Of a stretch of DNA of 64,000 bases, positions 34,350 to 58,602 are shown in pieces. The translations under genes were made by a program, and so were the position numbers. The DNA is taken from assembly GCF_900142435.1 (NCBI RefSeq), contig NZ_LT670846.1, positions 586,750-650,749 of the forward strand, written 5' to 3'. Under the pieces are notes generated by a model. The model saw only the letters and a program-made list of their open reading frames with translations. It made no database searches and was not told the DNA's origin. Source of the stretch: Thermocrinis minervae (GTDB lineage: Bacteria; Aquificota; Aquificia; Aquificales; Aquificaceae). How positions within the stretch are numbered: position 1 is the stretch's first letter; every line of letters begins with the position of its first letter.

Positions 34350-34907
34350 ATGGAGAAGAGGATTCAAACGCCACTCACAGATGAGGTAGTGGAAAGCTTA
34401 AGGGCTGGTGACAAGGTTCTCATATCTGGTTACATATACACGGCTAGAGACGCCGCCCACAAGAGGATGGTGGAAGCCCTTGAAAGAGGAGAACCTTTAC
34501 CCTTTGACGTAAAAGGACAGATAATCTACTACGTGGGGCCTACTCCTCCGAAGCCCGGACAGGTAATAGGCTCAGCAGGTCCAACCACTGCCATAAGGAT
34601 GGACAAGTATGTGGAACCACTTTTAAAGCTTGGCCTTAAGGGTATGATAGGAAAGGGTTACAGGTCACCCCAGGTTAAGGAGCTCCTTCAAAAGTACAAG
34701 GCCGTCTACTTTGCTGCCGTCGGTGGTGTGGCAGTTTTGCTTTCCAAGTGTATAAAGTCTTCTGAAGTCATAGCCTACGAAGACCTTGGTACTGAGGCGA
34801 TAAGAAGGCTTTACGTGGAGGACTTTCCTGTTATAGTTGCCAACGACATCTACGGCGGTGATATCTTTGAAGAGGGAAGAAAGAGGTTTGCTAAGATAGT
34901 CATATGA
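34350..34907 (+). CDS. Class I fumarate hydratase, beta (C-terminal) subunit
   Basis: Class I fumarases are oxygen-sensitive [4Fe-4S] enzymes that interconvert fumarate and malate. In many thermophiles and archaea they are split into two subunits. The 185-residue product is the C-terminal type subunit: KVLISGYIYTARDAAHKRM, YVGPTPPKPGQVIGSAGPTT and GKGYRSPQVKELL. The N-terminal cluster-binding subunit is not in this window. I use the ATG at 34350 rather than a TTG five codons earlier because of the promoter position. It overlaps trxB by 4 bases. The related tartrate dehydratase subunit is the main alternative. Confidence 0.85.
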   Translation: MEKRIQTPLTDEVVESLRAGDKVLISGYIYTARDAAHKRMVEALERGEPLPFDVKGQIIYYVGPTPPKPGQVIGSAGPTTAIRMDKYVEPLLKLGLKGMIGKGYRSPQVKELLQKYKAVYFAAVGGVAVLLSKCIKSSEVIAYEDLGTEAIRRLYVEDFPVIVANDIYGGDIFEEGRKRFAKIVI

Positions 34908-35836
34908 GGAAGAAATTGATAATACTTGGTGGAGGTCCAGCCGGCATATCTGCCTCCATATACGCATCAAGGAAGAAGATAGACTTTGCCCTCATAACCA
35001 AAGAGTTAGGTGGACAGGTGATAAAGGCAGGCGAGATAGAAAACTACTTGGGTTATACCTTGGTTGACGGTATATCCCTCGTGGAGAAGATGATAGAACA
35101 TCTAAAAAGGCTTGGTGTAGAGCCCATACTGGATGAGATAGTTGATGCAAGGAAAGATGGAGAGGTTTTTAGGCTTGTGGGTCTTTCTGGACAGGAGTAT
35201 CAGTGTGAATACCTTCTTTTATGCACAGGCTCTGAACACAGAAGGTTAAACATCCCGGGCGAGAAGGAATACACGGGAAGAGGAGTTTCTTATTGCTACA
35301 CTTGCGACGCTCCCTTCTTTAAGGGTAAGGATGTCGTGGTGGTGGGCGGAGGGAATTCAGGCTTTGAAGCCGCAGAGCAGCTTATAAACTACGCCAACAG
35401 GATATACCTGGTGGAGATATCGGACAGCTTTAGGGCTGATGAAGTCTTAAAGGAAAAGGTTTTGACAAATCCGAAGGTGGTTCCCTTGCTCAAACATAGG
35501 GTCTTGGAGATAAGAGGAGATGGAAAGCTCCTTAACGAAGTCCTTGTTGAGGATTTAAGCTCTAACAGAGTATACACACTCAGAGTGGAGGGGGTTTTCG
35601 TAGAGGTAGGACTCACACCTAACACGGATTTGGCCAAAAAACTCGGCGTTATCCTCAACTCAAGGGGCGAGATAGTTATAGACTGTAACAACAGGACATC
35701 GGAGCCTAGGATATATGCAGCTGGCGACTGCACTAGCGTGTTTGCCAAGCAGATAATCACGGCGGCCGGTGAAGGAGCCAAGGCCCTTCTATCCATCTAC
35801 CACGATATGACCTATGGGGTAAGCTCCTGGCTCTAA
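34904..35836 (+). CDS. trxB: Thioredoxin reductase-like flavoprotein
   Basis: The enzyme transfers electrons from NAD(P)H through FAD to a redox-active disulfide. The 310-residue product has the FAD motif [13 protein letters not shown] at the N-terminus, the active-site Cys pair in [10 protein letters not shown] near residue 134, the NAD(P)-binding [11 protein letters not shown] near 148, and the C-terminal YAAGDCTS. Length and motifs are standard for low-molecular-weight thioredoxin reductase. The start overlaps the fumarase gene as ATGA. Its 3' end overlaps selD on the other strand by 48 bases. Confidence 0.92.
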
Positions 35837-36814
35837 TACCCTGCCTATTTTCCATAGTTCAACGCAGAGCTCTTTTGCCCTTTCAAGCATCTCCCTCTCT
35901 GAGCTTTCTGGGACTGTAAACAGCAATCCACCGGAAGTTACAGGGTCAGAGAGGAGGATAAGCTTGTAAACATCAACTCCATCAGCCTTAAGATGATCTT
36001 TCACAAAGTTTAGGTTTTCCGTAGCTCCCTTCGGGAAGATCTTTTCCTTTACCAAGTGTTCAGACTCCTCGTACTTAGGAACTGAGGAGTAATTTATATA
36101 GATGGCGACACCTGACTTTCTTGCTATGTTGTAAGCGTGGCCTAGAAGGCCAAAACCCGTCACATCAGTACAGGCAGTAGCAAACTCCCAGGCTATACTT
36201 CCTACCAAGTCGTTGAGTTTTAGCATCCAACTTAAAGCTTCCTCCATATCCCCCTGGCTTATCCTACCTTCCTTTAGGGCTTTCACTAGCACTCCGGTAC
36301 CTATGGGCTTGCTTACGTAAAGCAGATTTCCTGCTCTAGCTCCAGACTGGGTTAGAAACTTACCTCCTGGAGCAATACCAGTCACAGCAAGACCAAACTT
36401 AGGTTCCTTATCGTCTATAGTATGCCCTCCCAACAGTACAGTTTTGGCCTCTCTGAGTTTATCCGAGCAACCTCTGAGAACCTCTTTTAAAACGTCAACA
36501 GAAAGGTCACAGCTGTTGAAACCAACCACAGCAAGGGCAGTCAACGGAATCCCACCCATAGCGTATATATCGCTTAGAGAGTTAACCGTAGATATGGCTC
36601 CCCAGAGGTACGGATCGTTTACCACAGGAGTGATAAAGTCTACCGTCTGTAAAAGGATAGACTCCCCCACTTTGTAAGCACCCGCATCATCCCCTACCCC
36701 CACCAGGGTGTTTGGGTCCTTGTAAAGGTTCAGTCCCTCAACCAGTTTTTCCAGGTCCGCCGGACCCACCTTCGCCGCTCAACCAGAAGCCCTGACGAGT
36801 CTGAGCAGCTCCAT
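35789..36814 (-). CDS. selD: Selenophosphate synthetase, itself a selenoprotein (in-frame UGA at codon 12)
   Basis: SelD makes selenophosphate from selenide and ATP. The frame begins at ATG 36814 and reads [11 protein letters not shown], then TGA (36781-36779), then [16 protein letters not shown], and continues open to TAG at 35789 (341 residues). The TGA falls exactly where SelD has its catalytic Cys or Sec, followed three residues later by the essential Lys (U12, K15: S-G-U-x-x-K). Aquifex SelD has the same layout. GDDAGAY and the GGHTIDD-type ATP site follow. Starting at a GTG after the TGA (36769) would delete the active site, so Sec decoding is strongly favoured. A hairpin sits 12 bases after the UGA. 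Confidence 0.92.
36752..36781 (-). promoter_or_regulatory. SECIS-like hairpin downstream of selD UGA
   Basis: Bacterial selenocysteine insertion needs a stem-loop just 3' of the UGA for SelB. On the minus strand, after TGA and 12 bases, GGTCC-GGC-GGACC forms a perfect 5-base-pair stem (36766-36754), extendable by two G-U pairs, with a GGC loop 18-20 bases after the UGA. Position and Gly-rich apical loop fit the bacterial SECIS type. The pairing is seen; the function is inferred. Confidence 0.7.
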
Positions 36815-54879: not shown

Positions 54880-55926
54880 CTAAATTCTTAACCTTAAGAT
54901 AAAAGGTAACCATACTATACATACGATAGAAGCCACGATGTATAGGGCTATTACATGGGAGTGTACTATGGTAAGCATACTTGAGTAAAGCAGTGTACCA
55001 CCTGCATGTGAAGCTATGTAGAAGAAAAAGAACCTGCTTACATAGTCTTCATCTTTGTATTTAACGTACAAATATACGCGCAAGAAAAACCAAAAAAGAG
55101 ATACACTTACGCCGAGGATAAGGGCTATTACGTAATAGGAGGTTCCTAAACTGAACATTATTGGTATACTTACACTGAATGTAACAAGTAAAATGGAAAA
55201 TCTTTTAATTTTCAGCAAGCTAAATAGAGCATCGGAAAGTAGAGAAACCACAAAAGCAGAAGCTAGAGCCACAGATATAAGAACTTTAGCATGAGCATCT
55301 GTAAAACCTGATTGATCTCTGACTATATAGTAGCCCAGAGAAGATAGGATTTCAATATACTCTCCGAGGACCAGTATAGCAGTAAACTCTATTAAAAACT
55401 CTTTTGAAAAAAGATGACTTGCAGTAAAGTTTACATTTCTTATCTTTTTAGTGAACATCAAGCCATACAAAGAAAAAGCAAACAACAAAGACATAAGCTT
55501 TAAGTTAAACTCTTCTAAGACAAGTACTATTGCTAAAGCCAGAAAACCAAAGGCATAAGACAAACCTACTACAGTTTCAAATCTTTCGTACTCTATGGCT
55601 GAAACCTCGTACCAAAATAACAATGGTATATGTAAAGCTAGAAAGGCTAAGTAGAGAACTAAAAGAAATGCAGTATTGTTAACAACTGTTATGGATAATG
55701 AAACAAGTATAAGAAGCCATATAAACATTGTGTATGCTTTTTCCTTATTCACGTATAAGCTGATCCACAACAAACACAATCCTATGATATCTATTAGGAA
55801 TATAAGAGTCCCGTAAGCTTCTACCCTATAGTTGGAGTATAGGAAGGAAGGTAGATGTACATAGTGAATATAAACAGCTATTAGGCTATCTAAAAAAGCA
55901 AAAAGCACGTACAAAATAGTACTCAT
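54880..55926 (-). CDS. Multi-pass membrane protein of unknown function
   Basis: The 348-residue product is strongly hydrophobic, with about ten predicted membrane helices and short charged loops. I see no transporter signature; the two-half layout with a central basic loop (MFTKKIRNVNF) loosely recalls the MFS fold. It overlaps the histidine kinase gene by 4 bases, which suggests that the two form a sensing unit, with the membrane protein as sensor or kinase partner. The RND operon follows after 43 bases. Confidence 0.7.
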   Translation of the reverse strand: MSTILYVLFAFLDSLIAVYIHYVHLPSFLYSNYRVEAYGTLIFLIDIIGLCLLWISLYVNKEKAYTMFIWLLILVSLSITVVNNTAFLLVLYLAFLALHIPLLFWYEVSAIEYERFETVVGLSYAFGFLALAIVLVLEEFNLKLMSLLFAFSLYGLMFTKKIRNVNFTASHLFSKEFLIEFTAILVLGEYIEILSSLGYYIVRDQSGFTDAHAKVLISVALASAFVVSLLSDALFSLLKIKRFSILLVTFSVSIPIMFSLGTSYYVIALILGVSVSLFWFFLRVYLYVKYKDEDYVSRFFFFYIASHAGGTLLYSSMLTIVHSHVIALYIVASIVCIVWLPFILRLRI

Positions 55927-57041
55927 GTGTAGGGTATCTTAATTACAGATACAAATTTGTCGTTGCTTTTGTGAAAGTTCACAAGTATACCTAGGTTTTT
56001 TGCAACTTCTCTTACTATAGAGAGTCCCACGCCATATGATAACTCTTCCATCAGGTTGCTATCTTCTCCTATTACGTTTGTTATGCTTAGGTTTACATAC
56101 TTTTCTCCTTTTTCTAATCTTAGAACTATATGAGTATTCTCTTTGGCATACTTAACAGCATTATCTATTAAGTTTGTAATAAGAGAGTACAGTAGTTCAT
56201 AGTCAGTTTGCACCTCCACGTGGTTTAGACCCTCAGTTTTAAGAATTAAGTTCTTAATCTGCAAACCATGCTGATAGAAATCCACTATATCCTTTATTAA
56301 TTGCATCAAATTAAATCTAGAAATATTCGTGGGTTTTATGTCTATGTTAGCTATAATCTTGAGCTTTGCAGTCAACTTTATTATTCTGTTTATTGCTTTT
56401 TGTATAACAATTTTTGTGTTTTCATCAACATTAACGTTTTGAAGGTTTAAAAGCAAAATGCTAAGTGGAGTCTTTATCTCGTGAGATATATACACGGCCA
56501 TCTTTTTTAGCCTTTCCGAATAAAGTTTATACCACCTGACTTGACCTAGTACGTTCATAATCGAGAGTATTGCTATAACAAAGCTTGTAAAAACAGAGGA
56601 AATAAGTGCAGAAAAGAGTAGGATCATCTTTCTCCTTATTATCCTTTCTTTTGGTAAAGCTAGAAGAATTCTGCACTTTGATTTATTACACAAAAAAGAT
56701 TTGGTATATATCAAATATTTTGAACTTTCTTTTAAACCATCCGATGTCTCTTCCAGCATACTTTTAAACGTGTTAAAATCCGAGTTCTTTACATTTACAG
56801 CCCCTATTATTGACCTATCTTTAATTAACATCATAATATATGTGCTTGTGATGTACTGATTATTTAATAAATCCTCATCTGCTGAGAGAAGTTTTATCAT
56901 ATTATTAGTGGCTTCTGTCAGGTATTCTTCTTCTAGTTTAACCATCTCCTGGTTAAATATAAACCAGAGCATTACAAAAAAGAAGCTTGTAGGTATAAAA
57001 AACTTAAAGAAATTTAAAAAGAATAATTTAAGTACACTCAT
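55923..57041 (-). CDS. Sensor histidine kinase (no regulator adjacent)
   Basis: The 372-residue product has membrane helices near 8-28 and 140-162 with a periplasmic region of about 110 residues. The cytoplasmic kinase part shows H-box YISHEIKTPLS (His187), N-box NLIDNAVKYAKE and G-box YGVGLSIVREVAKNLG. All motifs are intact. It is coupled to the unknown membrane protein. The base composition is more A+T-rich than the neighbours (many AAT, ATT and TTT codons). Confidence 0.9.
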   Translation of the reverse strand: MSVLKLFFLNFFKFFIPTSFFFVMLWFIFNQEMVKLEEEYLTEATNNMIKLLSADEDLLNNQYITSTYIMMLIKDRSIIGAVNVKNSDFNTFKSMLEETSDGLKESSKYLIYTKSFLCNKSKCRILLALPKERIIRRKMILLFSALISSVFTSFVIAILSIMNVLGQVRWYKLYSERLKKMAVYISHEIKTPLSILLLNLQNVNVDENTKIVIQKAINRIIKLTAKLKIIANIDIKPTNISRFNLMQLIKDIVDFYQHGLQIKNLILKTEGLNHVEVQTDYELLYSLITNLIDNAVKYAKENTHIVLRLEKGEKYVNLSITNVIGEDSNLMEELSYGVGLSIVREVAKNLGILVNFHKSNDKFVSVIKIPYT

Positions 57042-57059: not shown

Positions 57060-57778
57060 ATTTTACCTTAGCCGTTGGGGTTAATTGAGGAAAATACTTA
57101 AATATTTCAATCAGTTGTTCCTTGCAAAGTATTTTCTGCTTTCTAGTAGCTTTAAAGCTTCTCTAAAGATGTTTTCCGACATATGCTTCCTTATGCGTAG
57201 CAGGGCATGTAGCACTTCTTCCTCCCAACATTCCACCTTAGTGTATTCCTCAAGTATGTTTTTTTATCCTTGCGTGTATATCTGCTGTAAATTTTCTATA
57301 AAGATGCCCTCTTCTTTTCTTTTCCAGAAAGCATCTGCTTTCATAGAGCAGTGAATCAAACATCTTTTGAGAAACATAGTCCTTTGTTCCGAGTTTGCCA
57401 ATGGTATACCTTCCCTCTTCAATCCTCTCAACATCTTTGTTTTACCTTTACCTGTCTTGTCTGTAAGCACCAGAAGAGTTGGTTCTTCTAACCTTCTCTC
57501 CAGGTCTTTGAGTATATACTCCCTGTATGCTCTATAGCCACCTTTAAGTCTTAGAACTTCAATGCCAAAATAGTTAAGAGTTTTACTCTGTAGACTAAGC
57601 CTATAAGCTTCTTCTCCTGGTATTCAAAAAGGGGATGTTTATAGCATTCGGTATATGAAACTCCCTGTATTCAGATGGGTTCCTTAGATAATTTTTATAA
57701 AAAAGACTCTGTTTTTCTTTAATACGATATAAATCATTAATACAACTATTAGCTAATTTTATTGCCTGCTGATGCACT
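57060..57778 (-). pseudogene. mnmH: Decayed mnmH (selU), tRNA 2-selenouridine synthase
   Basis: MnmH uses selenophosphate to turn 2-thiouridine into 2-selenouridine at the tRNA wobble position. On the minus strand, remnants lie in order but in broken frames. NPSEYREFHIPNAINIPF (about 57693-57628) matches the rhodanese start and then ends at TAG (57603-57601). After a +1 shift, GIEVLRLKGGYRAYREYIL (about 57570-57512) matches the conserved rhodanese-to-P-loop junction. The P-loop TGKGKT follows (about 57449-57432), then a TAA (57266-57264), a deletion and a last helical piece up to a TGA near 57108. Total size is about 65% of a normal gene. Confidence 0.78.
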
Positions 57779-57790: not shown

Positions 57791-57822
57791 GATATAGCTA
57801 GTAAATAAAACGGAGGTTGAGC

Positions 57823-58602
57823 ATGGCTCACCAGGAGATGCATCACCATCATTTGGGTCATCATGAGACTAGCTTCTGGCCTTTCCCGGTAGGTATGGGT
57901 ATATTGCTCGTTCCCATTGGTGTAGTTTCCTACTTCGCATGGCACAAAGAGATGCTAGGTTTAGTGCTGGGTGGTGTAGCCTTCTTGCTCATAATATTTG
58001 GTCTAATAGGTTGGGCTAACGAGTTCTTCAGCAAGGGACACGAGGAAGGGTTTGGTGGTCTGGCCATATCCTTGTTCATAGCTACGGAAGTTATTATCTT
58101 CGGTACGCTCTTTGCTGCCTTTTGGACTGCAAGGGTCACACATGCAGATGTATGGCCTCAGTGGGTGCCACATATGAATCTTGTCATACCAGCTATACTC
58201 ACCCTTATACTTTGGTCTTCTAGTATAAGCATACTTTTCTCGGAAAAAGCCTTAGAGGCCGGCAATAGAGGTATGTCTATAATCTTACTTCTCCTAACTA
58301 TAGCTTTAGGTACAGCCTTCGTAATCATACACTTTCAAGAGTGGGCACACCTGTGGCATTCAGGTTTTACTCTTTCTTCTAATATGTACGGTACCGGTTT
58401 CTACTCTCTCACAGGTGTCCACACCTCCCACGTAATAGTTGGTTTGATATCTCAACTTTACGTTCTATACCTTGTGGCAACTGGTAAGATGAGCTCCCAC
58501 AGGACTACTCTCTTCAAAGCTGTTAGCCTGTACTGGCACTTTGTAGACCTTATGTGGCTTTTAGTAGCTGGAAGCGTTTATCTGATAGGTAGCCTGGTAT
58601 GA
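57823..58602 (+). CDS. coxC: Cytochrome c oxidase subunit III
   Basis: Subunit III stabilises the heme-copper oxidase core. The 259-residue product has about seven membrane helices, with the family segments FIATEVIIFGTLFAAFW and LTGVHTSHVIVGL near the fifth and sixth helices. The N-terminus is unusually His-rich (MAHQEMHHHHLGHHE). I start at ATG 57823, after GGAGG, rather than a TTG two codons earlier. It overlaps the SCO gene by 4 bases. The order III, SCO, II, I is not the common II, I, III order. Confidence 0.92.
   Translation: MAHQEMHHHHLGHHETSFWPFPVGMGILLVPIGVVSYFAWHKEMLGLVLGGVAFLLIIFGLIGWANEFFSKGHEEGFGGLAISLFIATEVIIFGTLFAAFWTARVTHADVWPQWVPHMNLVIPAILTLILWSSSISILFSEKALEAGNRGMSIILLLLTIALGTAFVIIHFQEWAHLWHSGFTLSSNMYGTGFYSLTGVHTSHVIVGLISQLYVLYLVATGKMSSHRTTLFKAVSLYWHFVDLMWLLVAGSVYLIGSLV

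What the first reader, a model, noticed from the sequence alone, without database searches (positions are those of the whole stretch)
57060..57778. Decayed tRNA 2-selenouridine synthase gene (mnmH) in a genome that still makes selenophosphate
Three conserved MnmH blocks (rhodanese NPSEYREFHIPNAINIPF, the GIEVLRLKGGYRAYREYIL junction and a P-loop) lie in the right order on the minus strand. They are split by a frameshift, stop codons and deletions. SelD normally feeds both Sec synthesis and MnmH. Loss of MnmH would leave Sec as the main use of selenophosphate here, so this is selenium-pathway reduction caught in progress.
Basis: partly seen in the sequence, partly recalled or inferred. Interest (0 to 1): 0.6.

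Follow-up and report, generated by a model that had tools for sequence, protein, structure and literature searches.

The report
Dead selenium pathway with stranded selD
The broken tRNA-selenium gene is real, but it is one of four broken selenium genes in this small Aquificaceae genome, which seems to have lost selenium use altogether and keeps only a selenophosphate synthetase gene whose own UGA codon it can no longer read, plus the matching tRNA.

Summary
Window 57126-57687 (-) is a wrecked mnmH: HMM/BLAST-supported pieces in several frames, with a stop, at least three deletions (one removes the catalytic-Cys motif CWRGG), a damaged P-loop and a missing C-terminus. No intact mnmH exists in the single-contig genome.

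It said that selenophosphate is still made and that Sec is its remaining use. In this genome selA is cut to codons 1-72. selB has lost about 385 of 576 codons and is joined out of frame. The Sec formate dehydrogenase survives only as scraps beside tRNA-Sec. What remains intact is tRNA-Sec and selD. But selD itself carries an in-frame UGA at its catalytic position plus a SECIS hairpin, so it needs the machinery that is gone. No YqeB or SenB is present that would give SelD another known job.

This is a near-complete collapse of selenium use, with mnmH more eroded than selA/selB. Losses of this kind are known (Yersinia pestis selB, insects, orphan SelD bacteria). The distinctive point is a UGA-dependent selD and tRNA-Sec left intact after everything they depend on or serve was lost. 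Simple lag is the likeliest reason. A retained readthrough function is not excluded.

The parts
57126..57687 (-). mnmH pseudogene (whole remnant)
   Evidence: HMM E 7.5e-13, tblastn pieces in three frames
57604..57687 (-). rhodanese N-terminal piece LRNPSEYREFHIPNAINIP, then frame change near 57634
57587..57634 (-). PLFEYQEKKLIGLVYR in the next frame; then ~51 codons incl. catalytic CWRGG missing
   Evidence: compare intact sequences
57384..57584 (-). GIEVLRLKGGYRAYREYIL junction and damaged P-loop DKTGKGKT (GKTGVGKT or close variants in intact homologues)
57343..57435 (-). VSQKMFDSLLY piece in another frame after a small deletion
57129..57330 (-). C-terminal-half piece with internal TAA; last ~54 residues absent
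   Evidence: 1 TAA inside
35789..36814 (-). selD, intact except for the Sec UGA
   Evidence: TIGR00476 300.8 bits, 1 TGA; 341 aa [16 protein letters not shown]...; 1 of 95 invariant sites changed, T to S
36779..36781 (-). in-frame TGA of selD at the Sec position
   Evidence: aligned with TGA in the Sec-encoding relatives and with TGT (Cys) in G001 and G011
36754..36766 (-). SECIS hairpin ggtccggcggacc of selD
   Evidence: near-identical at the same place in Sec-encoding relatives

Best explanation
The interval is a mnmH pseudogene, and it is one part of a near-complete extinction of selenium use in this lineage. mnmH and the Sec formate dehydrogenase (users of selenophosphate and of Sec) are gone, and the machinery genes selA and selB have been removed by large rearrangements or deletions. 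selD and tRNA-Sec still look intact but are stranded: selD cannot be translated to full length without SelA and SelB, and no known user of selenophosphate is left. Shown by sequence: the four relics, the intact selD with UGA and SECIS, the intact tRNA-Sec, and no second copies. Inferred: that SelD is not made, that selenium use is therefore nil, and that mnmH decayed before selA/selB, leaving a loop in which SelD and the Sec machinery served only each other until that loop broke too.
For: mnmH. selA: no HMM hit; only residues 1-72 at C1:1095295-1095510, abutting an unrelated multi-gene segment. selB: N-terminal 69-75 aa joined out of frame to the C-terminal ~120 aa, C1:433721-434289. Sec FDH: about 90 codons in scraps directly 5' of tRNA-Sec, Sec codon region deleted; relatives have a ~1030-codon gene with one TGA. 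selD with UGA and SECIS. tRNA-Sec 73.6 bits, within the relatives' range 68.9-77.7. No YqeB or SenB over cut-off. Erosion at family-invariant sites: mnmH 11/48 against selA+selB 4/75 (p 0.009) and SelD 1/95 (p 2e-5). Genome is one contig, 100% complete.
Against: selD and tRNA-Sec show no disabling damage, so some use cannot be excluded. No expression or read data were available. No second genome of this genus was held to date the losses. An unassembled plasmid could in principle carry selA/selB.
Confidence: 0.87

Rival explanations
1. One reading: only the selenouridine branch is lost; Sec synthesis continues and is the main use of selenophosphate.
For: selD and tRNA-Sec are intact; relatives G002 and G016 show exactly this state.
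Against: selA, selB and the Sec FDH are relics.
Confidence: 0.04
2. Assembly or sequencing errors create the apparent lesions.
For: The frame change near 57634 lies in a CCCCTTTTT run, where a one-base error is easy.
Against: The 51-codon gap, stop, further deletions, missing C-terminus and mutated P-loop cannot be one-base errors; three other selenium loci are independently broken by large deletions; adjacent genes are open.
Confidence: 0.02
3. selD and tRNA-Sec are kept by selection for a job outside known selenium use, e.g. UGA readthrough giving a SelD with another residue, as proposed for hymenopteran SPS1-UGA.
For: SelD is open apart from the UGA, with 1/95 invariant sites changed; tRNA-Sec D-stem keeps pairing through a G-C to A-T change; precedent of SPS1-UGA kept after selenoprotein loss in insects (PMC4561486).
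Against: The selA and selB remnants are also barely eroded at invariant sites (4/75), so recent loss explains the intactness; the bacterial SECIS is still there; no partner gene is known.
Confidence: 0.07

Closest known systems
MnmH / YbbB / SelU tRNA 2-selenouridine synthase
   Same: Order of rhodanese, junction and P-loop blocks; roughly 40-75% identity per piece to Aquificaceae MnmH
   Different: Catalytic-Cys motif deleted, P-loop mutated, several frames, stop, no C-terminus: not a functional member
Recent Sec loss in Yersinia pestis CO92/Mediaevalis (selB frameshift pseudogene; PMC1273633)
   Same: selB broken while other Sec genes persist; a UGA gene is stranded
   Different: Here selA and the Sec FDH are also destroyed and the stranded UGA gene is selD itself
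Orphan selD bacteria (26 listed in PMC5029168)
   Same: selD without any other intact selenium-use protein gene
   Different: This selD is UGA-encoded, relics of the lost partners are still present, and tRNA-Sec remains
Hymenopteran SPS1-UGA (PMC4561486)
   Same: Selenophosphate synthetase gene with UGA kept after Sec loss
   Different: Bacterial, not a duplicate, SECIS still present, no evidence of readthrough

Membership tests
MnmH (TIGR03167) | full-length score over the curated cut-off | tested here: not met
   48.1 bits vs 219.75; 19 of the 61 genomes searched pass
MnmH (TIGR03167) | catalytic Cys in rhodanese domain (CWRGG) | tested here: not met
   segment absent between 57587 and 57584; present in intact homologues
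MnmH (TIGR03167) | Walker A P-loop GKTGVGK[ST] or close variant | tested here: not met
   DKTGKGKT, two invariant positions changed
MnmH (TIGR03167) | descent from MnmH | tested here: met
   collinear tblastn pieces, E to 2e-38
Bacterial Sec-decoding trait | SelA | tested here: not met
   only residues 1-72 remain
Bacterial Sec-decoding trait | SelB | tested here: not met
   N- and C-terminal scraps joined out of frame
Bacterial Sec-decoding trait | tRNA-Sec (selC) | tested here: met
   73.6 bits, anticodon TCA
Bacterial Sec-decoding trait | SelD | tested here: inconclusive
   gene complete but needs Sec insertion at its own UGA
Orphan SelD | SelD with no intact SelA/SelB, MnmH or Se-cofactor gene | tested here: met
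   YqeC not searched separately
SPS1-UGA-like readthrough | full-length product made without Sec machinery | not testable with these tools
   needs proteomics

The most novel reading that the evidence does not exclude
The UGA-containing selD, perhaps with orphan tRNA-Sec (charged with Ser), is still expressed by non-Sec readthrough and kept for a role outside selenium metabolism: a bacterial counterpart of insect SPS1-UGA.
Probability: 0.07. Interest if true: 0.8.

Novelty: new member of a known kind. Interest (0 to 1): 0.42.

Why it matters
It catches a bacterium at the last stage of losing an expanded genetic code: relics of selA, selB, the Sec enzyme and mnmH are all still readable, and the only intact UGA gene found is selD, which both feeds and depends on the lost machinery. 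That gives a testable order of loss and a case of orphan selD that may need no unknown selenium trait, which bears on how other orphan SelDs are read.

Tried and rejected
Looked for an intact second mnmH, selA or selB: none. Considered other uses of SelD: YqeB gives a 23-bit partial hit and SenB only sub-threshold partial hits, both rejected. Considered assembly error: one frame change could be one, the rest cannot. A CoxC scan of genome contigs meant to find sister species returned two Aquificaceae MAG loci without mnmH beside coxC; no conserved mnmH neighbourhood was seen among the relatives looked at. An FDH erosion count (12/49) is inflated by deletion junctions and was not used for ordering. 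In the mnmH erosion count (11/48) a few sites lie at piece edges (D173N, G125R) and may be misaligned; dropping them leaves 9/46. The script stopped with an index error after printing the results used here.

Full report
The observation. The minus strand of window 57126-57687 carries fragments of mnmH. The NCBIfam model TIGR03167 finds this as the only place in the 1,367,821-base, single-contig genome (E 7.5e-13, 48.1 bits, cut-off 219.75). Translated pieces match MnmH models on their own. Against intact MnmH proteins of Aquificaceae, tblastn gives collinear pieces in three frames: 57687-57604, 57634-57587, 57584-57384, 57435-57343 and about 57330-57129, the last with an in-frame TAA. About 51 codons with the catalytic motif CWRGG are missing, as are shorter stretches near 57400 and 57340 and the last ~54 residues. 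The P-loop reads DKTGKGKT. The neighbouring genes, a sensor kinase (55923-57041, -) and cox subunit III (57817-58602, +), are open, so general sequencing failure is not the cause. One frame change lies in a homopolymer run near 57634 and could be an error; the rest cannot.

What the rest of the genome shows. I searched for the other parts. SelA: no HMM match, and tblastn finds only residues 1-72 at C1:1095295-1095510, cut off where an unrelated multi-gene segment begins. SelB: no match over the cut-off; residues 1-75 and 457-574 of the 576-residue relative survive side by side at C1:433721-434289 in different frames. Sec formate dehydrogenase: relatives have a ~1030-codon gene with one TGA, often a few kilobases from tRNA-Sec; here about 90 codons in scraps lie directly 5' of tRNA-Sec, with the Sec codon region deleted. 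tRNA-Sec itself scores 73.6 bits, like those of relatives; its D-stem differs from theirs by a pair change that keeps pairing. selD (window 35789-36814) is complete, but its catalytic position is TGA, followed by the SECIS hairpin shared with relatives. No YqeB or SenB over cut-off is present.

Interpretation. Without SelA and SelB the UGA in selD is a stop codon, so the gene very probably gives an 11-residue peptide. A downstream GTG would give a protein lacking both the Sec and the conserved Lys that follows it; that both are needed for catalysis is from general knowledge of SelD, not tested here. The genome has therefore, by inference, lost selenocysteine, selenouridine and selenophosphate together. 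This was not shown biochemically.

Order of loss. At positions invariant among intact relatives, the mnmH pieces have 11 of 48 changed (9 of 46 if two doubtful edge sites are dropped), selB 3 of 66, selA 1 of 9 and SelD 1 of 95. mnmH differs from selA+selB at p 0.009. This fits mnmH decaying before selA and selB, after which SelD and the Sec machinery would have served little but each other. The counts are small and no sister species was held, so this order is a proposal. The intact state of selD is not strong evidence of function, because the surviving parts of selA and selB are also little eroded.

Family context. Among the first 37 genomes of the family, 17 have SelB, all of them with a strong tRNA-Sec and a UGA-selD. 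G001, G011 and G019 have mnmH with full or partial selD lacking the TGA (Cys codon seen in G001 and G011) and no Sec. Many have nothing. Among 64 family genomes only G000 shows recognisable mnmH relics. Selenium use has thus been lost repeatedly here, and this window's genome is one loss caught before the traces vanished.

Comparison with the literature. Recent Sec loss by a selB pseudogene is described for Yersinia pestis (PMC1273633). Orphan selD genes are listed in 26 bacteria, with pseudogenes named as one possible reason (PMC5029168). An SPS gene kept with its UGA after selenoprotein loss is known in Hymenoptera (PMC4561486). SelD as sole selenoprotein supporting YbbB is described in PMC1794560. 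The present case combines these: an orphan, UGA-dependent selD with the wreckage of its partners still in place. I found no report of it in Aquificaceae in the searches made, which cover open-licence papers only.

Noticed in passing
G005 (draft, 60 contigs): Has intact SelA, UGA-selD, tRNA-Sec and a Sec-type FDH gene with TGA, but no SelB and no mnmH at all; assembly gap or a second loss in progress.
   Followed up: partly
window 35789-35836: The 3' ends of selD (-) and a thioredoxin-reductase-like gene (34904-35836, +) overlap by 48 bases.
   Followed up: no
L149, C1:1095250-1095290: The selA relic abuts a cut-off ORF whose start resembles that of an intact ORF at C1:1092370, suggesting a duplicated or inserted gene island caused the truncation.
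   Followed up: partly
G015:C8:7211-8002 and C108:1000-2040: Two mnmH matches in one genome, one ending after about 264 residues.
   Followed up: no
L050 (G022 selD) and L048 (G005 selD): A second in-frame TGA close to the C-terminal end of selD in these two genomes; probably the true stop codon.
   Followed up: no
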